Below, piece by piece: positions 2,451 through 38,470 of a stretch of DNA of 64,000 nt (position 1 is its first letter; each line of letters starts with the position of its first letter). Both the position numbers and the translations under genes were made by a program. Under the pieces are notes generated by a model. That model did no database searches, had not been told where the DNA came from, and saw only the letters and a list, made by a program, of their open reading frames with translations. The stretch lies in the NCBI GenBank assembly GCA_028135785.1, contig JAOIHS010000002.1:89386-153385 (forward strand). Direction: 5' to 3'. The DNA is from SAR86 cluster bacterium. Lineage in GTDB: Bacteria > Pseudomonadota > Gammaproteobacteria > Magnimaribacterales > AG-339-G14.

Positions 2451-3114
2451 ATATACCTGTTCCTATCCTAATCATTGTAGAACCATTTTCTATTGCAAGA
2501 CTATAATCACTACTCATTCCCATAGAAATCTCACCGGCAGTTTCAAATTTCATCATTAGTTTCTTTGATAATAAAAAAGTTTTTTTAAAACTTTCACTTA
2601 GATCATATTTATTTCCTTTATTTTCCGGTATCACCATTATCCCTTTTAAGTTTAAGTTAGGCAGGCTATCAATTTCCATTGCAATATCTAATAATTGATC
2701 TTCAGATATACCAGATTTAGTTTCTTCAGAATCAATATTTATTTGGATTAAAATATTAATTTCTTTTCCAGCAGGACAAAATTTAGACAAAAGCTTCGCA
2801 GTCTTTATTCTATCAACTGTATGAACCCAATCAAAATTTTCAGCAATTTGTTTACATTTGTTAGACTGAATTGAACCAATAAAGTGCCAAATAATTTTAC
2901 TATTTTTAAAAAAATTAATTTTCTCTATAGATTCCTGTAGATAGTTTTCTCCAAAATTCAATATTCCAGCTTCTAGGGCTTGAGAAATCAGTTCTATTGG
3001 TTTTTTTTTGCTTACTGCTATTATTTTTAATGTTCTATCTTCTCTATTAGAGAGACTTAATGTTTCTTGAACGGACTTTTGTGTCATTGAAATTTTTTTA
3101 TGTATTTCGTGCAT
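2434..3114 (-). CDS. YggS-family pyridoxal phosphate homeostasis protein
   Basis: IAVSKKKP, FGENYLQE, WHFIGSIQSNK, GMSSDYSLAI, MIRIGTGIFG motifs. Confidence 0.92.
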   Translation of the reverse strand: MHEIHKKISMTQKSVQETLSLSNREDRTLKIIAVSKKKPIELISQALEAGILNFGENYLQESIEKINFFKNSKIIWHFIGSIQSNKCKQIAENFDWVHTVDRIKTAKLLSKFCPAGKEINILIQINIDSEETKSGISEDQLLDIAMEIDSLPNLNLKGIMVIPENKGNKYDLSESFKKTFLLSKKLMMKFETAGEISMGMSSDYSLAIENGSTMIRIGTGIFGERN

Positions 3115-4823
3115 TACATTTTTTCAGGAGCAGATACAGATAGTATTTCTAAACCACTTTTTATGGTTTTCTTGGTAGCCAGAAGAAGGGCAAATTTAGC
3201 GTTTCTCTTCTTTGGATCATCATCAATAATTACTTCAGAATTATAGAAAGTGTGAAATTTTGAAGCTAAATCTCTCAAGTAAAAACATATCGGATGTATT
3301 TCTAAATCTCGATATGATTGTTCTAAAATATCTTGATAATGCTCAATAAAAGAAATCATTTCAGATTCTTGTGGCTGATTTAATTGATATAAATTTTCGC
3401 ATCCCTCTTCAATATCAAAATGCATTCCTCTTTTAATCAATTCTTTCTCTAAACTACAGATTCTTGCGTGAGCATATTGAATATAATACACAGGATTATT
3501 TTTATCCTCTGAGGTTGCAATATTTAGATCAAAATCTAAAGATTGATCTCCTTTTCTAGCCAAGAAAAAAAACCTAGCAGCATCAACACCCACTTCATCT
3601 ATAAGACTACTCAATGTTATAAATTCACCAGCTCTTGTAGACATGGATACTAGCTTTCCGTCTCTTATTAAAGAGACAAACTGAATAAAAATAGTTTTTA
3701 AAATATCTTTATTTAGACCTAGAGCCTCAACTGCTCCTTTTATTCTAGGTAGGTAGCCGTGATGATCGGCCCCCCATATATTTATAAGTAAATCAAAGCC
3801 TCTATGATACTTTGAGTCGTGATAAGCAATATCCGAGGCGAAATATGTAGGCTCACTATTTTCTCTAATAAAAACTCTATCTTTTTCATCACCATAATTT
3901 GATGATTTAAACCATGTAGCTCCATCTTTTATCGATAAATTATTAGACGCCTTCAATTTCTCGCTAGTTTTTAAAAAATTACTCTTTTTAGTTGATTCAT
4001 AAAGGGATGACTCGTTAAACCAAGTATCATGATTTACTCTAAACTTTTTTAAATCAGATTTTATTTTTTTAATCTCAAAATCAATAGAAAAGTTAATCAG
4101 CAGGCTAAATTCTTTAAAATTTTTATTAATAAATTTTTTCATTTCTTCTGATTCATCAATTTTTAAAAACGTATCTATCTCTCTGATAAGAAATTTATCC
4201 TGAAAAGATTTTTTAAGTTCTTCTGCCGTATTTTTGATGTAATCACCTTGATAACAATCTTCGGGAAGACTTATATCAACACCAAATAATTCTTGATATC
4301 TTAAGAAGACACTTAGGCCTAAAGTCTCAGATTGGAGACCTCTGTCATTAATGTAATATTCTTGAATGACATCATTACCCGCCTTCATTAATAAATTAGT
4401 TAAAGCAGATCCGAAAGCAGCCCCTCTTCCATGGCCAACATGTATGGGGCCAGTAGGATTGCAAGAAACGTATTCTATAAGAATTTTTTTTGGGGCATCT
4501 TCTGCAAAAGGAAAATAAGAATCTTTACTCTTTATTAGTTTCTTTAAATAAGCTAAGGACGCATCATTGGAAAGAAAAAAATTAATAAACCCAGGACCAG
4601 CGATTTCAACTTTATCAATCCATTCATGATCTCCTAGAGCAGAAATTATCTCATATGCTAAATCACGAGGATTTTTTTTTAATTCTTTAGCTAAAATCAT
4701 AGCCACATTAGTAGTCCAGTCTCCGTGAACTTCTGATTTTGTTCTAAGAACCTCCATCGAAATACTGGTTTTAGTTATTGTAGAGATAGTTTTTTCTAAC
4801 AAATCTTGAATATCTTTTTTCAC
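3114..4823 (-). CDS. argS: arginyl-tRNA synthetase
   Basis: EYVSCNPTGPIHVGHGRGAAFG signature; class I aaRS architecture; length 569 aa. Confidence 0.95.
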   Translation of the reverse strand: MKKDIQDLLEKTISTITKTSISMEVLRTKSEVHGDWTTNVAMILAKELKKNPRDLAYEIISALGDHEWIDKVEIAGPGFINFFLSNDASLAYLKKLIKSKDSYFPFAEDAPKKILIEYVSCNPTGPIHVGHGRGAAFGSALTNLLMKAGNDVIQEYYINDRGLQSETLGLSVFLRYQELFGVDISLPEDCYQGDYIKNTAEELKKSFQDKFLIREIDTFLKIDESEEMKKFINKNFKEFSLLINFSIDFEIKKIKSDLKKFRVNHDTWFNESSLYESTKKSNFLKTSEKLKASNNLSIKDGATWFKSSNYGDEKDRVFIRENSEPTYFASDIAYHDSKYHRGFDLLINIWGADHHGYLPRIKGAVEALGLNKDILKTIFIQFVSLIRDGKLVSMSTRAGEFITLSSLIDEVGVDAARFFFLARKGDQSLDFDLNIATSEDKNNPVYYIQYAHARICSLEKELIKRGMHFDIEEGCENLYQLNQPQESEMISFIEHYQDILEQSYRDLEIHPICFYLRDLASKFHTFYNSEVIIDDDPKKRNAKFALLLATKKTIKSGLEILSVSAPEKM

Positions 4824-5390
4824 TTATTTGGCTCTACTTTGATATTCGTTATTTCTTGTATCTATCTTTATTACATCACCTTGGTCAATAAATAAGGGCA
4901 CTTTAACTTCTAGACCATTAGCCAACTTAGCTGACTTAAGAGTATTTGTTGTTGTGTCTCCCTTGAATCCTGGTTCTGTTTCTAAAATTTTAATTTCAAT
5001 AAAAGTATCAATATCCACTGAAACTAGAGTATCTTCCCAAAGGGCAATTTCATAAGTTTCACCTTCCTTGATCCAAAGGCTTTTATAACCCATTAACTCA
5101 AGATCAAAATTTATTTGCTCATAACTATCAAGATCCATAAAAACGGCACTATTAGCCTCTTTATAAAGATACTGCATATTTGAAGTAGAAATATCAGCTT
5201 TTTCGACAGACTCACCAGTTTTGAAAGTCTTATCTAGAACTCTTCCAGTTATTAAACTTCTATATTTGACACGCATTACAGCCTGTCCTTTCCCTGGCTT
5301 GTGGAATTGGTTGTCTACGATTTCACAAAGCTCATTTTCTATAAGTACTTTTAAACCTGGTCTAAACTCATTTGTGCTGATCATTGCCAT
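4824..5390 (-). CDS. efp: elongation factor P
   Basis: NEFRPGLKVLIENELCEIVDNQFHKPGKGQAVMRVK; C-terminal EVKVPLFIDQGDVIKIDTRNNEYQSRAK. Confidence 0.95.
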   Translation of the reverse strand: MAMISTNEFRPGLKVLIENELCEIVDNQFHKPGKGQAVMRVKYRSLITGRVLDKTFKTGESVEKADISTSNMQYLYKEANSAVFMDLDSYEQINFDLELMGYKSLWIKEGETYEIALWEDTLVSVDIDTFIEIKILETEPGFKGDTTTNTLKSAKLANGLEVKVPLFIDQGDVIKIDTRNNEYQSRAK

Positions 5391-35447: not shown

Positions 35448-35491
35448 GTGCCCAGAGGTGGAATCGAACCACCGACACAAGGATTTTCAGT
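35448..35491 (-). repeat. att-like direct repeat: 3' fragment of tRNA-Phe (left end of element)
   Basis: GTGCCCAGAGGTGGAATCGAACCACCGACACAAGGATTTTCAGT identical to 38397-38440. Confidence 0.95.
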
Positions 35492-35566
35492 TCTAGTCTC
35501 TTATTGATATAAGCTTTTCGAAATAATAATATTAGGTAATGAGAATTAATTTTAAGGTCTTTAAAT

Positions 35567-36286
35567 ATGCCAAAGAAGATTAAGGGTATAAATGTCTCAG
35601 TCTATTCAAAGAAGATTGAATCGCTCAAAAAAAACTTCAGCATTCTTAGTGTTGACGCAAATAAAATATTAAATAAATACGAAAATATATCTTTTGAAGA
35701 CACATATTTATCAAAAAAAGAATCTTTTATTTCATTAATGAGATTAAACCCAAGCATGGCACTTATAAGGTATCTTGACTCAAAGACAGACCTTTGGCAC
35801 TTCAAAGATAAAAGAACAAACATTGAATATGCAATTGATTTAGTATTAGGTTGGTTAAGTGAAGATATAATTATTTCTCATCTAAGAGAAAAAAGCATTA
35901 AATGTGATTTAAATGGCAGAGATAAGTATAGAGAGTTTCTAAGTCCAAAATATATCTCTGCACAACCTGACATAAAGATAAAAATTAATGAACGATATAG
36001 AACACTTGAAATTGCGAATGATTGGAATGACTACTGGATTAGGTCAGATATGCTGGATCTAAGAGATAACAAGTTTCTAAAACTAAGAAATGAAAAATCA
36101 TTATTTCTTGGAATTGCGCCACTATCCTCAAAGGGAATCTTCTTAGATTTCTCTGAAAAATTAGATTTTATTAAGAGATTTAATCCCGCATACGGTAAGA
36201 GCGCTTATACTTTAAAAAAAATTCGAAATAGAATGAATAATATTGATATATCGATACAAGAATTGTTATCAGTAAAATATGAATGA
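35567..36286 (+). CDS. uncharacterised protein, possible PD-(D/E)xK-like restriction endonuclease
   Basis: AQPDIKIKINERYRTLEIANDWNDYW...LDLRDNKFLKL pattern; overlaps start of HNH gene by 8 nt; opposite a m5C methylase. Confidence 0.4.
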   Translation: MPKKIKGINVSVYSKKIESLKKNFSILSVDANKILNKYENISFEDTYLSKKESFISLMRLNPSMALIRYLDSKTDLWHFKDKRTNIEYAIDLVLGWLSEDIIISHLREKSIKCDLNGRDKYREFLSPKYISAQPDIKIKINERYRTLEIANDWNDYWIRSDMLDLRDNKFLKLRNEKSLFLGIAPLSSKGIFLDFSEKLDFIKRFNPAYGKSAYTLKKIRNRMNNIDISIQELLSVKYE

Positions 36287-36896
36287 TACAGAATTTAAAA
36301 AGTATGCAAAAATTTTAAAAGATAGTTATGTTGAACATCTTGAGAAAGAACAAGTAAAGTTTCCAAGTGGAATCAAGTTATATGAGCTTTGTTATTTATA
36401 TAAAAATTTTAAAAAACCATTAGCGATAAGTGAAATATCAAATGCAGTTCAAAAAAAATACCCTAACCAGGATGGCAAACAAGCAAGACACTTAGCAGGG
36501 TCTGGTTGGTATCTAAAGACTGGAACAAAGACAGCAACAATTTTTCAATATGATGAAAATATACCTCATGCTCACCTGATGTTATTTTCAATAAAAGAAA
36601 AAAATCCAAAATATAATCCAAAAAAAAGGGATGACATAATTAATGCAACAGAATGGGAAGATATTTTGAAGTTATTCAATAAAAGAGGTTGTGCAGTATG
36701 CGGCATTAAGGATGTAAGTTATGACAAAGGACATTTAGATGATGAAAAAGGATACAGAGATAATGTTGTACCAATGTGTAGATCTTGCAATAACTGGGGC
36801 ATGAAATACAAATTAAAATTTGAATTAGATAAAAATAATCCTCTTATTGCAAGACCAGTTCTCAAAGGAAGAAATTTTAAGTTTTCAGAGATTTAA
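36279..36896 (+). CDS. HNH endonuclease, probable restriction enzyme
   Basis: CAVCGIKDVSYDKGHLDDEKGYRDNVVPMCRSCNNW: two Cys pairs with an HNH core. Confidence 0.8.
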   Translation: MNDTEFKKYAKILKDSYVEHLEKEQVKFPSGIKLYELCYLYKNFKKPLAISEISNAVQKKYPNQDGKQARHLAGSGWYLKTGTKTATIFQYDENIPHAHLMLFSIKEKNPKYNPKKRDDIINATEWEDILKLFNKRGCAVCGIKDVSYDKGHLDDEKGYRDNVVPMCRSCNNWGMKYKLKFELDKNNPLIARPVLKGRNFKFSEI

Positions 36897-37950
36897 ATAT
36901 CTCTTTACCTAGCGCCTTTGCTAGATGAAATGGAACTGCATTTCCAATTTGAAGATTTTTACTAGTTTTACTTCCATAAAATATATAACTATCTGAAAAT
37001 CCTTGTAATCTTGCTCCTTCTCTTGTTGACAGCGCTCTGTTTTGAAAAGGATGTATACATCTAGATGATGAAGGCGTACCAAAATTCCTTGTTATTGTTG
37101 GCGAAGGCAAGTCACTATCAAGTCTTGCATAAGTATTACCAAAATAACTCTTGGGTCTCAGTTGGTCTGGCAAATCTTTGATGGAACCATTTTTAGGAAC
37201 TAAAGACATTATAAGTTTCATTTTCTCGCCATAATTAGTTGAATTATGTTCAGAAAGAATTTTTTCCTTGCCTCTTAATTCTTTTTGCAGCGTAGTTTTT
37301 GGTTCTAAGTATGTATCACTTTTATCATTAGAGCCTAACGGCGGGAGGTCAGAGATTGCATCCGAAAGAATATTATATTTCTTTGTAAAAAGATTCCCAT
37401 CTTTGCTGTGGGTAGGCACAGGAAAGTCAAAAATTATTCCATCTTTGTAACCTACTACAATTGTTCTCTTTCTATGTTGTGGAGAACCATAATTTGCTGC
37501 ATCAAGAATCCCACTTTTTACTTTGTAACCAATATCGCTTAGTTCAGAAACAAGCGTATTAAATGCTATTCCTTTATAAAGTTTTTTGAACCCTGAAACA
37601 TTTTCAAACAAAACCATTCTAGGATTGATTTCTTCAACCGCTCTAAGAAATTGCCAAAATAAAGAATTCCTTTTGTCTTTCTCATTTTTCTTTCCAACTG
37701 TGCTGAAACCTTGACATGGCGGACCTCCGCATACCAGATCAAGTCTTTCAGGATGAATATGTTTTAAGACCTCAGAATAATTTACATTTCCTATGTCCTC
37801 ACTAATAACTAGGCACTTCTTATGATTTCTCTTAAATGTTTCTGCGAAATCTTTATTAATTTCTACTGCAACCAAAGATCTAATACCTTCTTGTAGTAAC
37901 CCACAAGACAATCCTCCTGCACCTGAAAATAGATCTATTGAATTAAACAT
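36877..37950 (-). CDS. DNA (cytosine-5-)-methyltransferase
   Basis: LFSGAGGLSCGL (I), CGGPPCQGFSTVGK (IV), LFENVSGF (VI), QHRKRTIVVGY (VIII), RLQGFSD (IX), QIGNAVPFHLA (X). Confidence 0.95.
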   Translation of the reverse strand: MFNSIDLFSGAGGLSCGLLQEGIRSLVAVEINKDFAETFKRNHKKCLVISEDIGNVNYSEVLKHIHPERLDLVCGGPPCQGFSTVGKKNEKDKRNSLFWQFLRAVEEINPRMVLFENVSGFKKLYKGIAFNTLVSELSDIGYKVKSGILDAANYGSPQHRKRTIVVGYKDGIIFDFPVPTHSKDGNLFTKKYNILSDAISDLPPLGSNDKSDTYLEPKTTLQKELRGKEKILSEHNSTNYGEKMKLIMSLVPKNGSIKDLPDQLRPKSYFGNTYARLDSDLPSPTITRNFGTPSSSRCIHPFQNRALSTREGARLQGFSDSYIFYGSKTSKNLQIGNAVPFHLAKALGKEIFKSLKT

Positions 37951-38073
37951 AAATTATTTTATTAAGTAATCTTAGGAATAATAACTTAACCTAAAATATT
38001 AGTAGTGGATACATCTAGAAGAGATTTTTTAAAAGTAATTCTGGCAGGTGGGATTTAAATTCCAACTTTCTCA

Positions 38074-38334
38074 ATGGCAGAAAGTTTTTTATTAAATAAC
38101 AAAAAAGATCCAAATATCAGTGAAGTTATTATCACTTCTGATGCTTTACAAAGAAGTTATAGCGATCTTGACGAGATAAATCTTAGTTTTGTATTTTATT
38201 CTTTACTGCTTGAATATTCAGAATACCTATATTCATTTATGATCATTGTTCTTGCCTTGCTGGTATTCTCAATTAGCGGCATTCCAATGATAGATACTCT
38301 TTATCTTGGTATTGAAGAACACTTTAAAATATGA
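38074..38334 (+). CDS. hypothetical protein with one hydrophobic segment
   Basis: 86-aa ORF inside the island; LYSFMIIVLALLVFSISGIPMI TM-like stretch. Confidence 0.4.
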   Translation: MAESFLLNNKKDPNISEVIITSDALQRSYSDLDEINLSFVFYSLLLEYSEYLYSFMIIVLALLVFSISGIPMIDTLYLGIEEHFKI

Positions 38335-38394
38335 ACACTCAAACTAATGTTCATAAGTGTTCATAAAACTCTAATTTAAGAAATGCTTTAAGAG

Positions 38395-38470
38395 TGGTGC
38401 CCAGAGGTGGAATCGAACCACCGACACAAGGATTTTCAGTCCTTTGCTCTACCAACTGAGCTATCTGGGC
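38395..38470 (-). tRNA. tRNA-Phe (GAA), CCA encoded
   Basis: Minus strand GCCCAGATAGCTCAGTTGGTAGAGCAAAGGACTGAAAATCCTTGTGTCGGTGGTTCGATTCCACCTCTGGGCA-CCA folds as a cloverleaf; anticodon loop CTGAAAA. Confidence 0.97.

What the first reader, a model, noticed from the sequence alone, without database searches (positions are those of the whole stretch)
35567..37950. R-M-like module with two different candidate nucleases against one m5C methylase
Two + strand ORFs overlap by 8 nt (ATG 36279 precedes TGA 36284-36286), and the second converges with the methylase with a 20-bp tail overlap (36877-36896). The second ORF has a clear HNH core. The first has a PD...(x)LEIAND...LDLRDNKFLKL pattern that could be a divergent PD-(D/E)xK fold. 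A typical type II system needs one endonuclease. Two coupled nucleases suggest a heteromeric enzyme, a nicking pair, or a nuclease plus an accessory specificity protein. I cannot name a characterised family for ORF 35567-36286.
Basis: partly seen in the sequence, partly recalled or inferred. Interest (0 to 1): 0.65.

Follow-up and report, generated by a model that had tools for sequence, protein, structure and literature searches.

The report
Integrase-less tRNA cassette carrying restriction-modification
A streamlined marine-type bacterium carries a 2.9-kb DNA cassette lodged in its phenylalanine tRNA gene that encodes a DNA methylase, an HNH nuclease and a third, nuclease-like protein; it is one of many such cassettes that fill this tRNA site in related genomes, mostly with restriction genes and mostly without any integrase of their own.

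Summary
The three genes exist as described, overlaps included. The methylase is an intact m5C enzyme. ORF2 is an HNH-type protein with conserved zinc and catalytic residues. ORF1 matches no family; its predicted topology and D135/E148 fit a PD-(D/E)xK fold, but the canonical catalytic lysine is Ala and the model is weak. A SAR11-like alphaproteobacterium (L068) has the same three genes in another order. A second (L071) has methylase plus HNH without ORF1, so the HNH protein alone is probably the cognate endonuclease and ORF1 an accessory or second nuclease. Methylases 90% identical to each other carry three different nuclease sets, so partners are swapped.

The module is a 2949-bp cassette between a 44-nt duplicate of the tRNA-Phe 3' end and the intact tRNA-Phe. 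Of 36 related genomes carrying this tRNA sequence, 12 hold such cassettes (15 segments, 2 with an integrase), with much R-M cargo. Unrelated cassettes share end sequences and cassette-specific paired repeats at fixed distances from the core, like integrase arm sites. The window's right arm is 89% identical to that of a different R-M cassette in another genus; its left arm is missing. Helper integrase and enzyme activities are untested.

The parts
35448..38396 (.). The cassette: 2949-bp unit inserted at the 3' half of tRNA-Phe
   Evidence: Exact 44-nt direct repeat 35448-35491 / 38397-38440; in cassette-free relatives the left flank runs on into the intact tRNA
35448..35491 (-). Duplicated 3' part of tRNA-Phe (3' end up to the anticodon loop), the left attachment core
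   Evidence: 44/44 identity with the intact tRNA gene; identity stops in the anticodon loop
35567..36286 (+). ORF1, 239 aa; PD-(D/E)xK-like protein without the canonical lysine; one homologue known
   Evidence: 38% identity, E 1e-40 to L068; topology from AlphaFold at mean pLDDT 60; no family hit
36279..36896 (+). ORF2, 205 aa; HNH nuclease with Cys4 site; probable cognate restriction endonuclease
   Evidence: 40-44% identity to HNH genes beside the same methylase in L068 and L071; invariant CxxC, DKGH, CxxCNN
36877..37950 (-). m5C DNA methyltransferase, 357 aa, motifs intact
   Evidence: PF00145 E 8e-71, TIGR00675 E 5e-60, PADLOC MTase_II E 1e-104; 59-62% identity to SAR11-type loci
38002..38334 (+). 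Remnant of a Tat-signal protein (SRRDFLKVILAGGI, then an in-frame stop), passenger
   Evidence: Reading frame seen; not followed further
38326..38399 (+). Conserved right end of the cassette
   Evidence: 89% identical over 74 nt to the right end of an unrelated R-M cassette in G307, another genus
38330..38338 (+). Inverted arm-type repeat TATGAACAC
   Evidence: same position in the G307 cassette
38348..38366 (+). Paired arm-type repeats TGTTCATAA-g-TGTTCATAA
   Evidence: p about 0.002 against shuffles; the paired word occurs only at these two cassettes in 40 genomes
38395..38470 (-). Intact tRNA-Phe (GAA), the integration site
   Evidence: ARAGORN

Best explanation
This is a small mobile cassette that carries a Type II-like restriction-modification module and sits in the 3' half of tRNA-Phe. 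Inferred mechanism: the m5C methylase marks its target in the host genome; the HNH protein (ORF2) cuts unmarked incoming DNA; ORF1, a translationally coupled PD-(D/E)xK-like protein, assists as a second nuclease or as a specificity partner but is dispensable in principle. The cassette has no integrase. It was probably inserted by a tyrosine integrase supplied in trans that recognises the tRNA-Phe core plus the TGTTCATA arm repeats still present at its right end. Because the left arm is missing it is now probably fixed or hard to excise. Shown: gene content, conservation of the trio, recurrence of cassettes at this site, shared ends. Inferred: enzymatic roles, integrase in trans.
For: Methylase family assignment. 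Same three genes in L068 in a different order and orientation; methylase plus HNH only in L071. HNH residues invariant in three proteins. 44-nt duplicate of tRNA-Phe, and left flank plus intact tRNA contiguous in cassette-free relatives G290, G291, G292 and G276. 12 of 36 related genomes have 1-2 cassettes at the same site with mostly unrelated cargo; integrase in only 2 of 15 segments. Right end shared with the G307 cassette; paired arm word present 3 times in 40 genomes, all at these two cassettes, none in the reversed control. Fixed-distance paired repeats in other cassettes. An integrase-less metal-resistance-like cassette is 99.0% identical in DNA between G294 and G176 of different genera, while the neighbouring peptidase is about 85% identical in protein in a comparable cross-genus pair, G294 and G279. 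G176 is a single contig, 97% complete, with two integrase-family genes of 300-309 aa, Xer-like in size.
Against: No enzymatic or mobility data. ORF2 and ORF1 have no significant match to any characterised nuclease. The left arm of the window cassette is absent. No cassette-encoded integrase with TGTTCATA arms was found. The window genome is only 65% complete. HNH and ORF1 could be inactive.
Confidence: 0.6

Rival explanations
1. ORF1 and ORF2 form one obligate heteromeric restriction enzyme (like BbvCI or BslI), neither working alone.
For: Overlapping genes here and directly adjacent genes in L068; ORF1 never seen without ORF2. Heteromeric Type II enzymes are known (PMC4081073).
Against: L071 has the same methylase type (59%) and the HNH gene with no ORF1 in its genome. 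Type IIT enzymes usually come with two methylases or a fused one (PMC4081073); here there is one.
Confidence: 0.2
2. ORF1 and ORF2 are two independent endonucleases of the same specificity stacked on one methylase, so that loss or inhibition of one leaves the other.
For: The methylase family is paired elsewhere with an HNH gene alone (L071) or with unrelated nuclease-like genes alone (L069, L070, L072, L073, L074, L080). L068 ORF1 shows weak similarity to the L070 protein (2 of 300 shuffles reach the score).
Against: Profile-profile comparison finds no homology (hhalign E 0.34); the window ORF1 itself scores like a shuffle; catalytic lysine not at its usual place.
Confidence: 0.15
3. ORF1 is a non-restriction accessory, for example a Vsr-like mismatch nicking enzyme that repairs damage from m5C deamination.
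For: Vsr-type genes accompany some m5C methylases (own knowledge).
Against: No match to the Vsr model or any other in Pfam or NCBIfam; size and motifs differ.
Confidence: 0.07
4. The cassettes are not trans-mobilised units but decayed integrative elements (CIMEs) that each lost their own integrase after arrival.
For: CIMEs in tandem at tRNA genes are well known (PMC5704250). Window, G293_1, G307_1 and G278 lack left arms.
Against: The integrase-less metal cassette moved recently between genera (99.0%); arms and core are kept in several integrase-less cassettes while cargo is compact.
Confidence: 0.35
5. The flanking repeat arose by R-M insertion with long target duplication (Kobayashi model), not by site-specific recombination.
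For: R-M insertions with long target duplication are described in the literature (phrase found in 17 papers).
Against: The same tRNA-Phe core bounds non-R-M cargo too, with fixed-position arms, and two cassettes encode tyrosine integrases.
Confidence: 0.03

Closest known systems
tRNA-direct-repeat gene cassettes of additive flexible genomic islands (Ca. Actinomarinales PMC7771536; Methylophilaceae fGI-2 PMC10872708)
   Same: Small cassettes inserted at tRNA genes, marked by repeats of part of the tRNA, stacked, in streamlined aquatic bacteria; transfer between genera reported for Actinomarinales
   Different: Here conserved end sequences and fixed-position, cassette-specific paired repeats are seen; the passages of those papers read here do not mention them
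CIMEs (cis-mobilizable elements, PMC5704250)
   Same: attL and attR kept, no integrase or transfer genes, tandem accretion at a tRNA gene
   Different: Several cassettes keep arm-type repeats and an integrase-less one has moved recently between genera
Tycheposons and tmRNA-linked islands (PMC10872708, PMC12595487)
   Same: tRNA or tmRNA site, cargo-rich, defence genes, no self-transfer genes
   Different: Those encode a tyrosine recombinase, shown to be needed for excision in the tmRNA case; the window cassette does not, and is smaller
Type II R-M systems with m5C methylase and HNH endonuclease
   Same: Methylase beside HNH nuclease
   Different: A third conserved gene of unknown family overlaps the HNH gene
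Type IIT / heteromeric Type II enzymes (BbvCI, Bpu10I, BslI; PMC4081073)
   Same: Two adjacent nuclease-like genes with a methylase
   Different: Two unrelated fold types are suggested here, one methylase only, and a relative without the second gene exists

Membership tests
Type II restriction-modification | Intact DNA methyltransferase | tested here: met
   PF00145 full-length with motifs I, IV, VI, VIII, IX, X
Type II restriction-modification | Cognate endonuclease gene linked to the methylase | tested here: inconclusive
   HNH gene linked in three genomes; cleavage not testable here
Type II restriction-modification | Endonuclease cuts the sequence the methylase protects | not testable with these tools
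   Recognition sequence unknown; no REBASE access
HNH (beta-beta-alpha-metal) nuclease, ORF2 | Conserved His/Asn core with Cys4 zinc site | tested here: met
   C138, C141, D149, H152, N162, C167, C170, N171 invariant in 3 proteins; family models below cut-off
PD-(D/E)xK nuclease, ORF1 | Alpha-beta-beta-beta-alpha-beta core | tested here: inconclusive
   Predicted order H85-108, E112-116, E135-140, E143-151, H165-176, E179-183, but pLDDT below 50 from residue 150 to 225; best fold hits E 0.2 and worse
PD-(D/E)xK nuclease, ORF1 | D...(D/E)xK catalytic triad | tested here: not met
   D135 and E148 present; lysine position is A150 (Met in L068). K169 and K172 invariant downstream
Type IIT heteromeric endonuclease | Two different subunits both required | tested here: inconclusive
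   L071 has HNH plus methylase without ORF1, which argues against obligate pairing
CIME | Flanked by attL and attR, lacks integrase and transfer genes | tested here: met
   44-nt repeats, no integrase ORF in 35448-38440
CIME | Derived by decay of an ICE or IME | tested here: inconclusive
   No conjugation or relaxase remnants noticed; origin unknown
tycheposon | Own tyrosine recombinase next to the tRNA | tested here: not met
   None in the window cassette; present only in G286 and G282 cassettes
tRNA-repeat cassette of an additive genomic island | Cassette at a tRNA gene marked by a duplicated tRNA part, empty in relatives, variable cargo | tested here: met

The most novel reading that the evidence does not exclude
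A class of helper-dependent gene cassettes in streamlined marine bacteria: compact cargo (largely R-M and other defence genes) framed by a tRNA-Phe attachment site whose arm repeats differ between cassette lineages, so that each lineage is moved in trans by a different integrase and the tRNA site works like an integron-like dock for defence genes. Within it, a restriction module with an HNH enzyme and a new nuclease-like partner around a methylase that swaps nucleases.
Probability: 0.4. Interest if true: 0.75.

Novelty: new variant of a known kind. Interest (0 to 1): 0.55.

Why it matters
Streamlined ocean bacteria carry few prophages or plasmids, yet their defence genes turn over fast. Small integrase-less cassettes with recognisable arm sequences at one tRNA gene would help explain how, and make the carrier testable: the arm word predicts which integrase moves which cassette. 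For restriction biology, a methylase that seems to keep its specificity while its nuclease partner is exchanged, including a two-nuclease set, is a natural experiment in how restriction enzymes are replaced.

Tried and rejected
ORF1 and ORF2 against Pfam, NCBIfam, PADLOC, PDB sequences, phages, plasmids and IMG/VR: nothing significant. Larger genome searches found no convincing further homologues (one search gave one short partial match, one search had no positive control and shows little). Homology of ORF1 to the L070/L073 proteins: aligned by MAFFT but not supported by hhalign or hmmsearch against shuffles; only L068 vs L070 stands out. ORF2 structure prediction failed (pLDDT 43) and was not used. 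Looking for the helper: the core in IMG/VR gave only a tRNA-Phe gene inside a tRNA cluster on a 111-kb contig; the arm word gave none; the G286 integrase has no phage or IMG/VR relative detected. Extra integrase loci in G289, G274 and G284 have neither the core nor paired arms. The methylase recognition site could not be named.

Full report
1. Observation. All coordinates of the finding are right. ORF1 35567-36286 and ORF2 36279-36896 overlap by 8 nt; ORF2 and the methylase 36877-37950(-) converge with a 20-nt overlap. The methylase is an intact m5C enzyme (PF00145 E 8e-71; TIGR00675). ORF1 and ORF2 have no significant family, PDB, phage or plasmid match.

2. The module is a conserved unit. 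A scan of GTDB contigs with the methylase gave 13 loci. L068, a SAR11-like alphaproteobacterium, has an ORF2 homologue (2678-3262), an ORF1 homologue (3262-3963, E 1e-40) and the methylase (3983-5068, 62% identity), all on one strand: the same three genes in another order. L071 has the methylase with a convergent ORF2 homologue, the window's arrangement, but no ORF1, and none elsewhere in its genome. ORF1 and ORF2 are rare: no other full-length homologue turned up in several hundred genomes of related groups searched with each (one search had no positive control).

3. Nuclease swapping. The methylases of L068, L069 and L070 are 90% identical to each other in protein and 87-90% in DNA, with the alignment around the module confined to the methylase gene and a few flanking bases. 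Their partners differ: HNH plus ORF1; a 300-aa protein; a 229-aa protein. More distant methylases (L072, L073, L074, L080) carry relatives of the 229-aa protein. The target-recognition part of the methylase is strongly conserved, so one specificity seems to be served by several unrelated nucleases. That is inference from sequence; the partner proteins of L069, L070 and L072-L080 match no family model and are called nucleases by position only.

4. ORF2. C138/C141, D149, H152, N162, C167/C170 and N171/N172 are invariant in three homologues, the layout of an HNH fold with a Cys4 zinc site. Since methylase plus ORF2 stand alone in L071, ORF2 is the best candidate for the cognate endonuclease.

5. 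ORF1. AlphaFold with six sequences gave mean pLDDT 60, good in the N-terminal half only. The element order and the placing of D135 and E148 fit PD-(D/E)xK, and several weak fold hits are PD-(D/E)xK nucleases or similar (Hjc, Kpn2I, McrBC, EcoO109I), but none is significant. The lysine of the motif is Ala here and Met in L068; K169 and K172 in the following helix are invariant, so a relocated lysine is possible but untested. The alignment used for folding includes four distant proteins whose homology is not established.

6. The mobile cassette. The only tRNA in the window is tRNA-Phe 38395-38470(-). A 44-nt exact copy of its 3' part, up to the anticodon loop, lies at 35448-35491, 2949 bp away. 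In cassette-free relatives the window's left flank continues straight into the intact tRNA-Phe (G290, 82% over 441 nt; likewise G291, G292, G276). No integrase lies in the interval. GC content is similar to or slightly below the surroundings.

7. A hot spot. Of 40 genomes of the family, 36 have the tRNA-Phe core; 12 of these have one or two extra copies in direct orientation on the same side. The 15 segments between copies are 0.9-8.5 kb. Cargo: m5C methylase plus endonuclease VII-type nuclease (G307); m5C methylase plus 299-aa protein (G298); Type I R and M/S genes (G287); MvaI/BcnI-type nuclease plus methylase plus integrase (G286); ResIII helicase with an Mrr-like domain (G280); HNH_4 nuclease plus HIT protein (G294); a CsoR-like/MerT-like cassette in five genomes; a satellite-like element with integrase (G282); two others. 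Only G286 and G282 encode an integrase.

8. Mobility without an integrase. The metal cassette is 99.0% identical between G294 and G176, which belong to different genera. The neighbouring peptidase, compared across the same two genera in G294 and G279, is 84.7% identical in protein. G176 is one contig, 97% complete; its only two PF00589 matches are ORFs of 300 and 309 aa, presumably XerC and XerD (the Xer names are inferred).

9. Arm sites. Just inside the core, the cassettes carry paired direct repeats at a fixed place: left end +48 to +52 with spacing 12 in nine segments (p 0.007 or less each against shuffles), or +63 to +65 with spacing 11 in G282 and G280; the repeated word differs by cassette lineage (TGTGCAC, TGTTCACC, TGTTCATA, GGGGACA, TGTTCAA, TGTTAAA, GGTTCAC). 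The nine segments include the metal cassette four times, so the independent lineages number about six. Unrelated cargo shares ends: window and G307 right ends 89% over 74 nt; G282 (integrase) and G280 (no integrase) left ends 74% over 122 nt; G307_1 and G287 right ends 97% over 31 nt. The paired TGTTCATA word occurs three times in 40 genomes: window right end and both ends of the G307 R-M cassette; the reversed control gives none. This is the pattern expected of integrase arm-type sites. The window cassette lacks a left arm, as do G293_1, G307_1 and G278, so it may be stranded.

10. The same methylase in tmRNA cassettes. In L069 the tmRNA 3' end is repeated at 1727-1788 and 3075-3105, and the partner-methylase pair starts right at the second repeat. 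L068 and L071 also lie within about 3 kb of tmRNA. So this methylase family is found in tRNA- or tmRNA-linked positions in two bacterial classes.

11. Known or new. tRNA-repeat cassettes in streamlined aquatic bacteria are described (PMC7771536, PMC10872708), as are CIMEs (PMC5704250) and tmRNA islands that need their own integrase (PMC12595487). I found no report of the arm architecture or of this hot spot, but the library held is partial and the original tycheposon paper was not available. I found no description of the R-M trio. The taxon is not named by the tools; a SAR86-like gammaproteobacterium is my guess from genome size and gene content.

Noticed in passing
L033, L034, L041, L048, L052 (G293, G294, G278, G176, G279), also L051 (G275) and L046 (G295) next to tRNA-Phe: A 1.8-1.9-kb integrase-less cassette with CsoR-like regulator, MerT-like protein, heavy-metal-associated protein and a 199-aa exported protein; 91-99% identical across genera.
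   Followed up: partly
L068, L069, L070: Methylases 90% identical with three different partner sets, DNA similarity ending at the methylase gene: partner exchange at one specificity.
   Followed up: partly
L069:580-5080: Tandem cassettes behind tmRNA with repeats of the tmRNA 3' end at 1727 and 3075; the first start codon of the partner ORF (3073) lies in the repeat, so its true start is probably further downstream.
   Followed up: partly
window 38002-38334: Remnant of a Tat-signal protein with one in-frame stop inside the cassette, next to the right arm.
   Followed up: no
L039 (G282), 8.5-kb segment: Satellite-like element at tRNA-Phe with a PF00589 integrase and many small ORFs; its left end resembles the integrase-less G280 cassette, a candidate helper-hitcher pair.
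   Followed up: partly
L038:10918-12066 (G286): 382-aa integrase with SAM-like N-terminal domain, no phage or IMG/VR relative detected, beside an MvaI/BcnI-type R-M pair.
   Followed up: partly
L034 (G294) and L039 (G282): HIT-family protein next to (G294) or apparently fused with (G282) an HNH nuclease in two cassettes.
   Followed up: no
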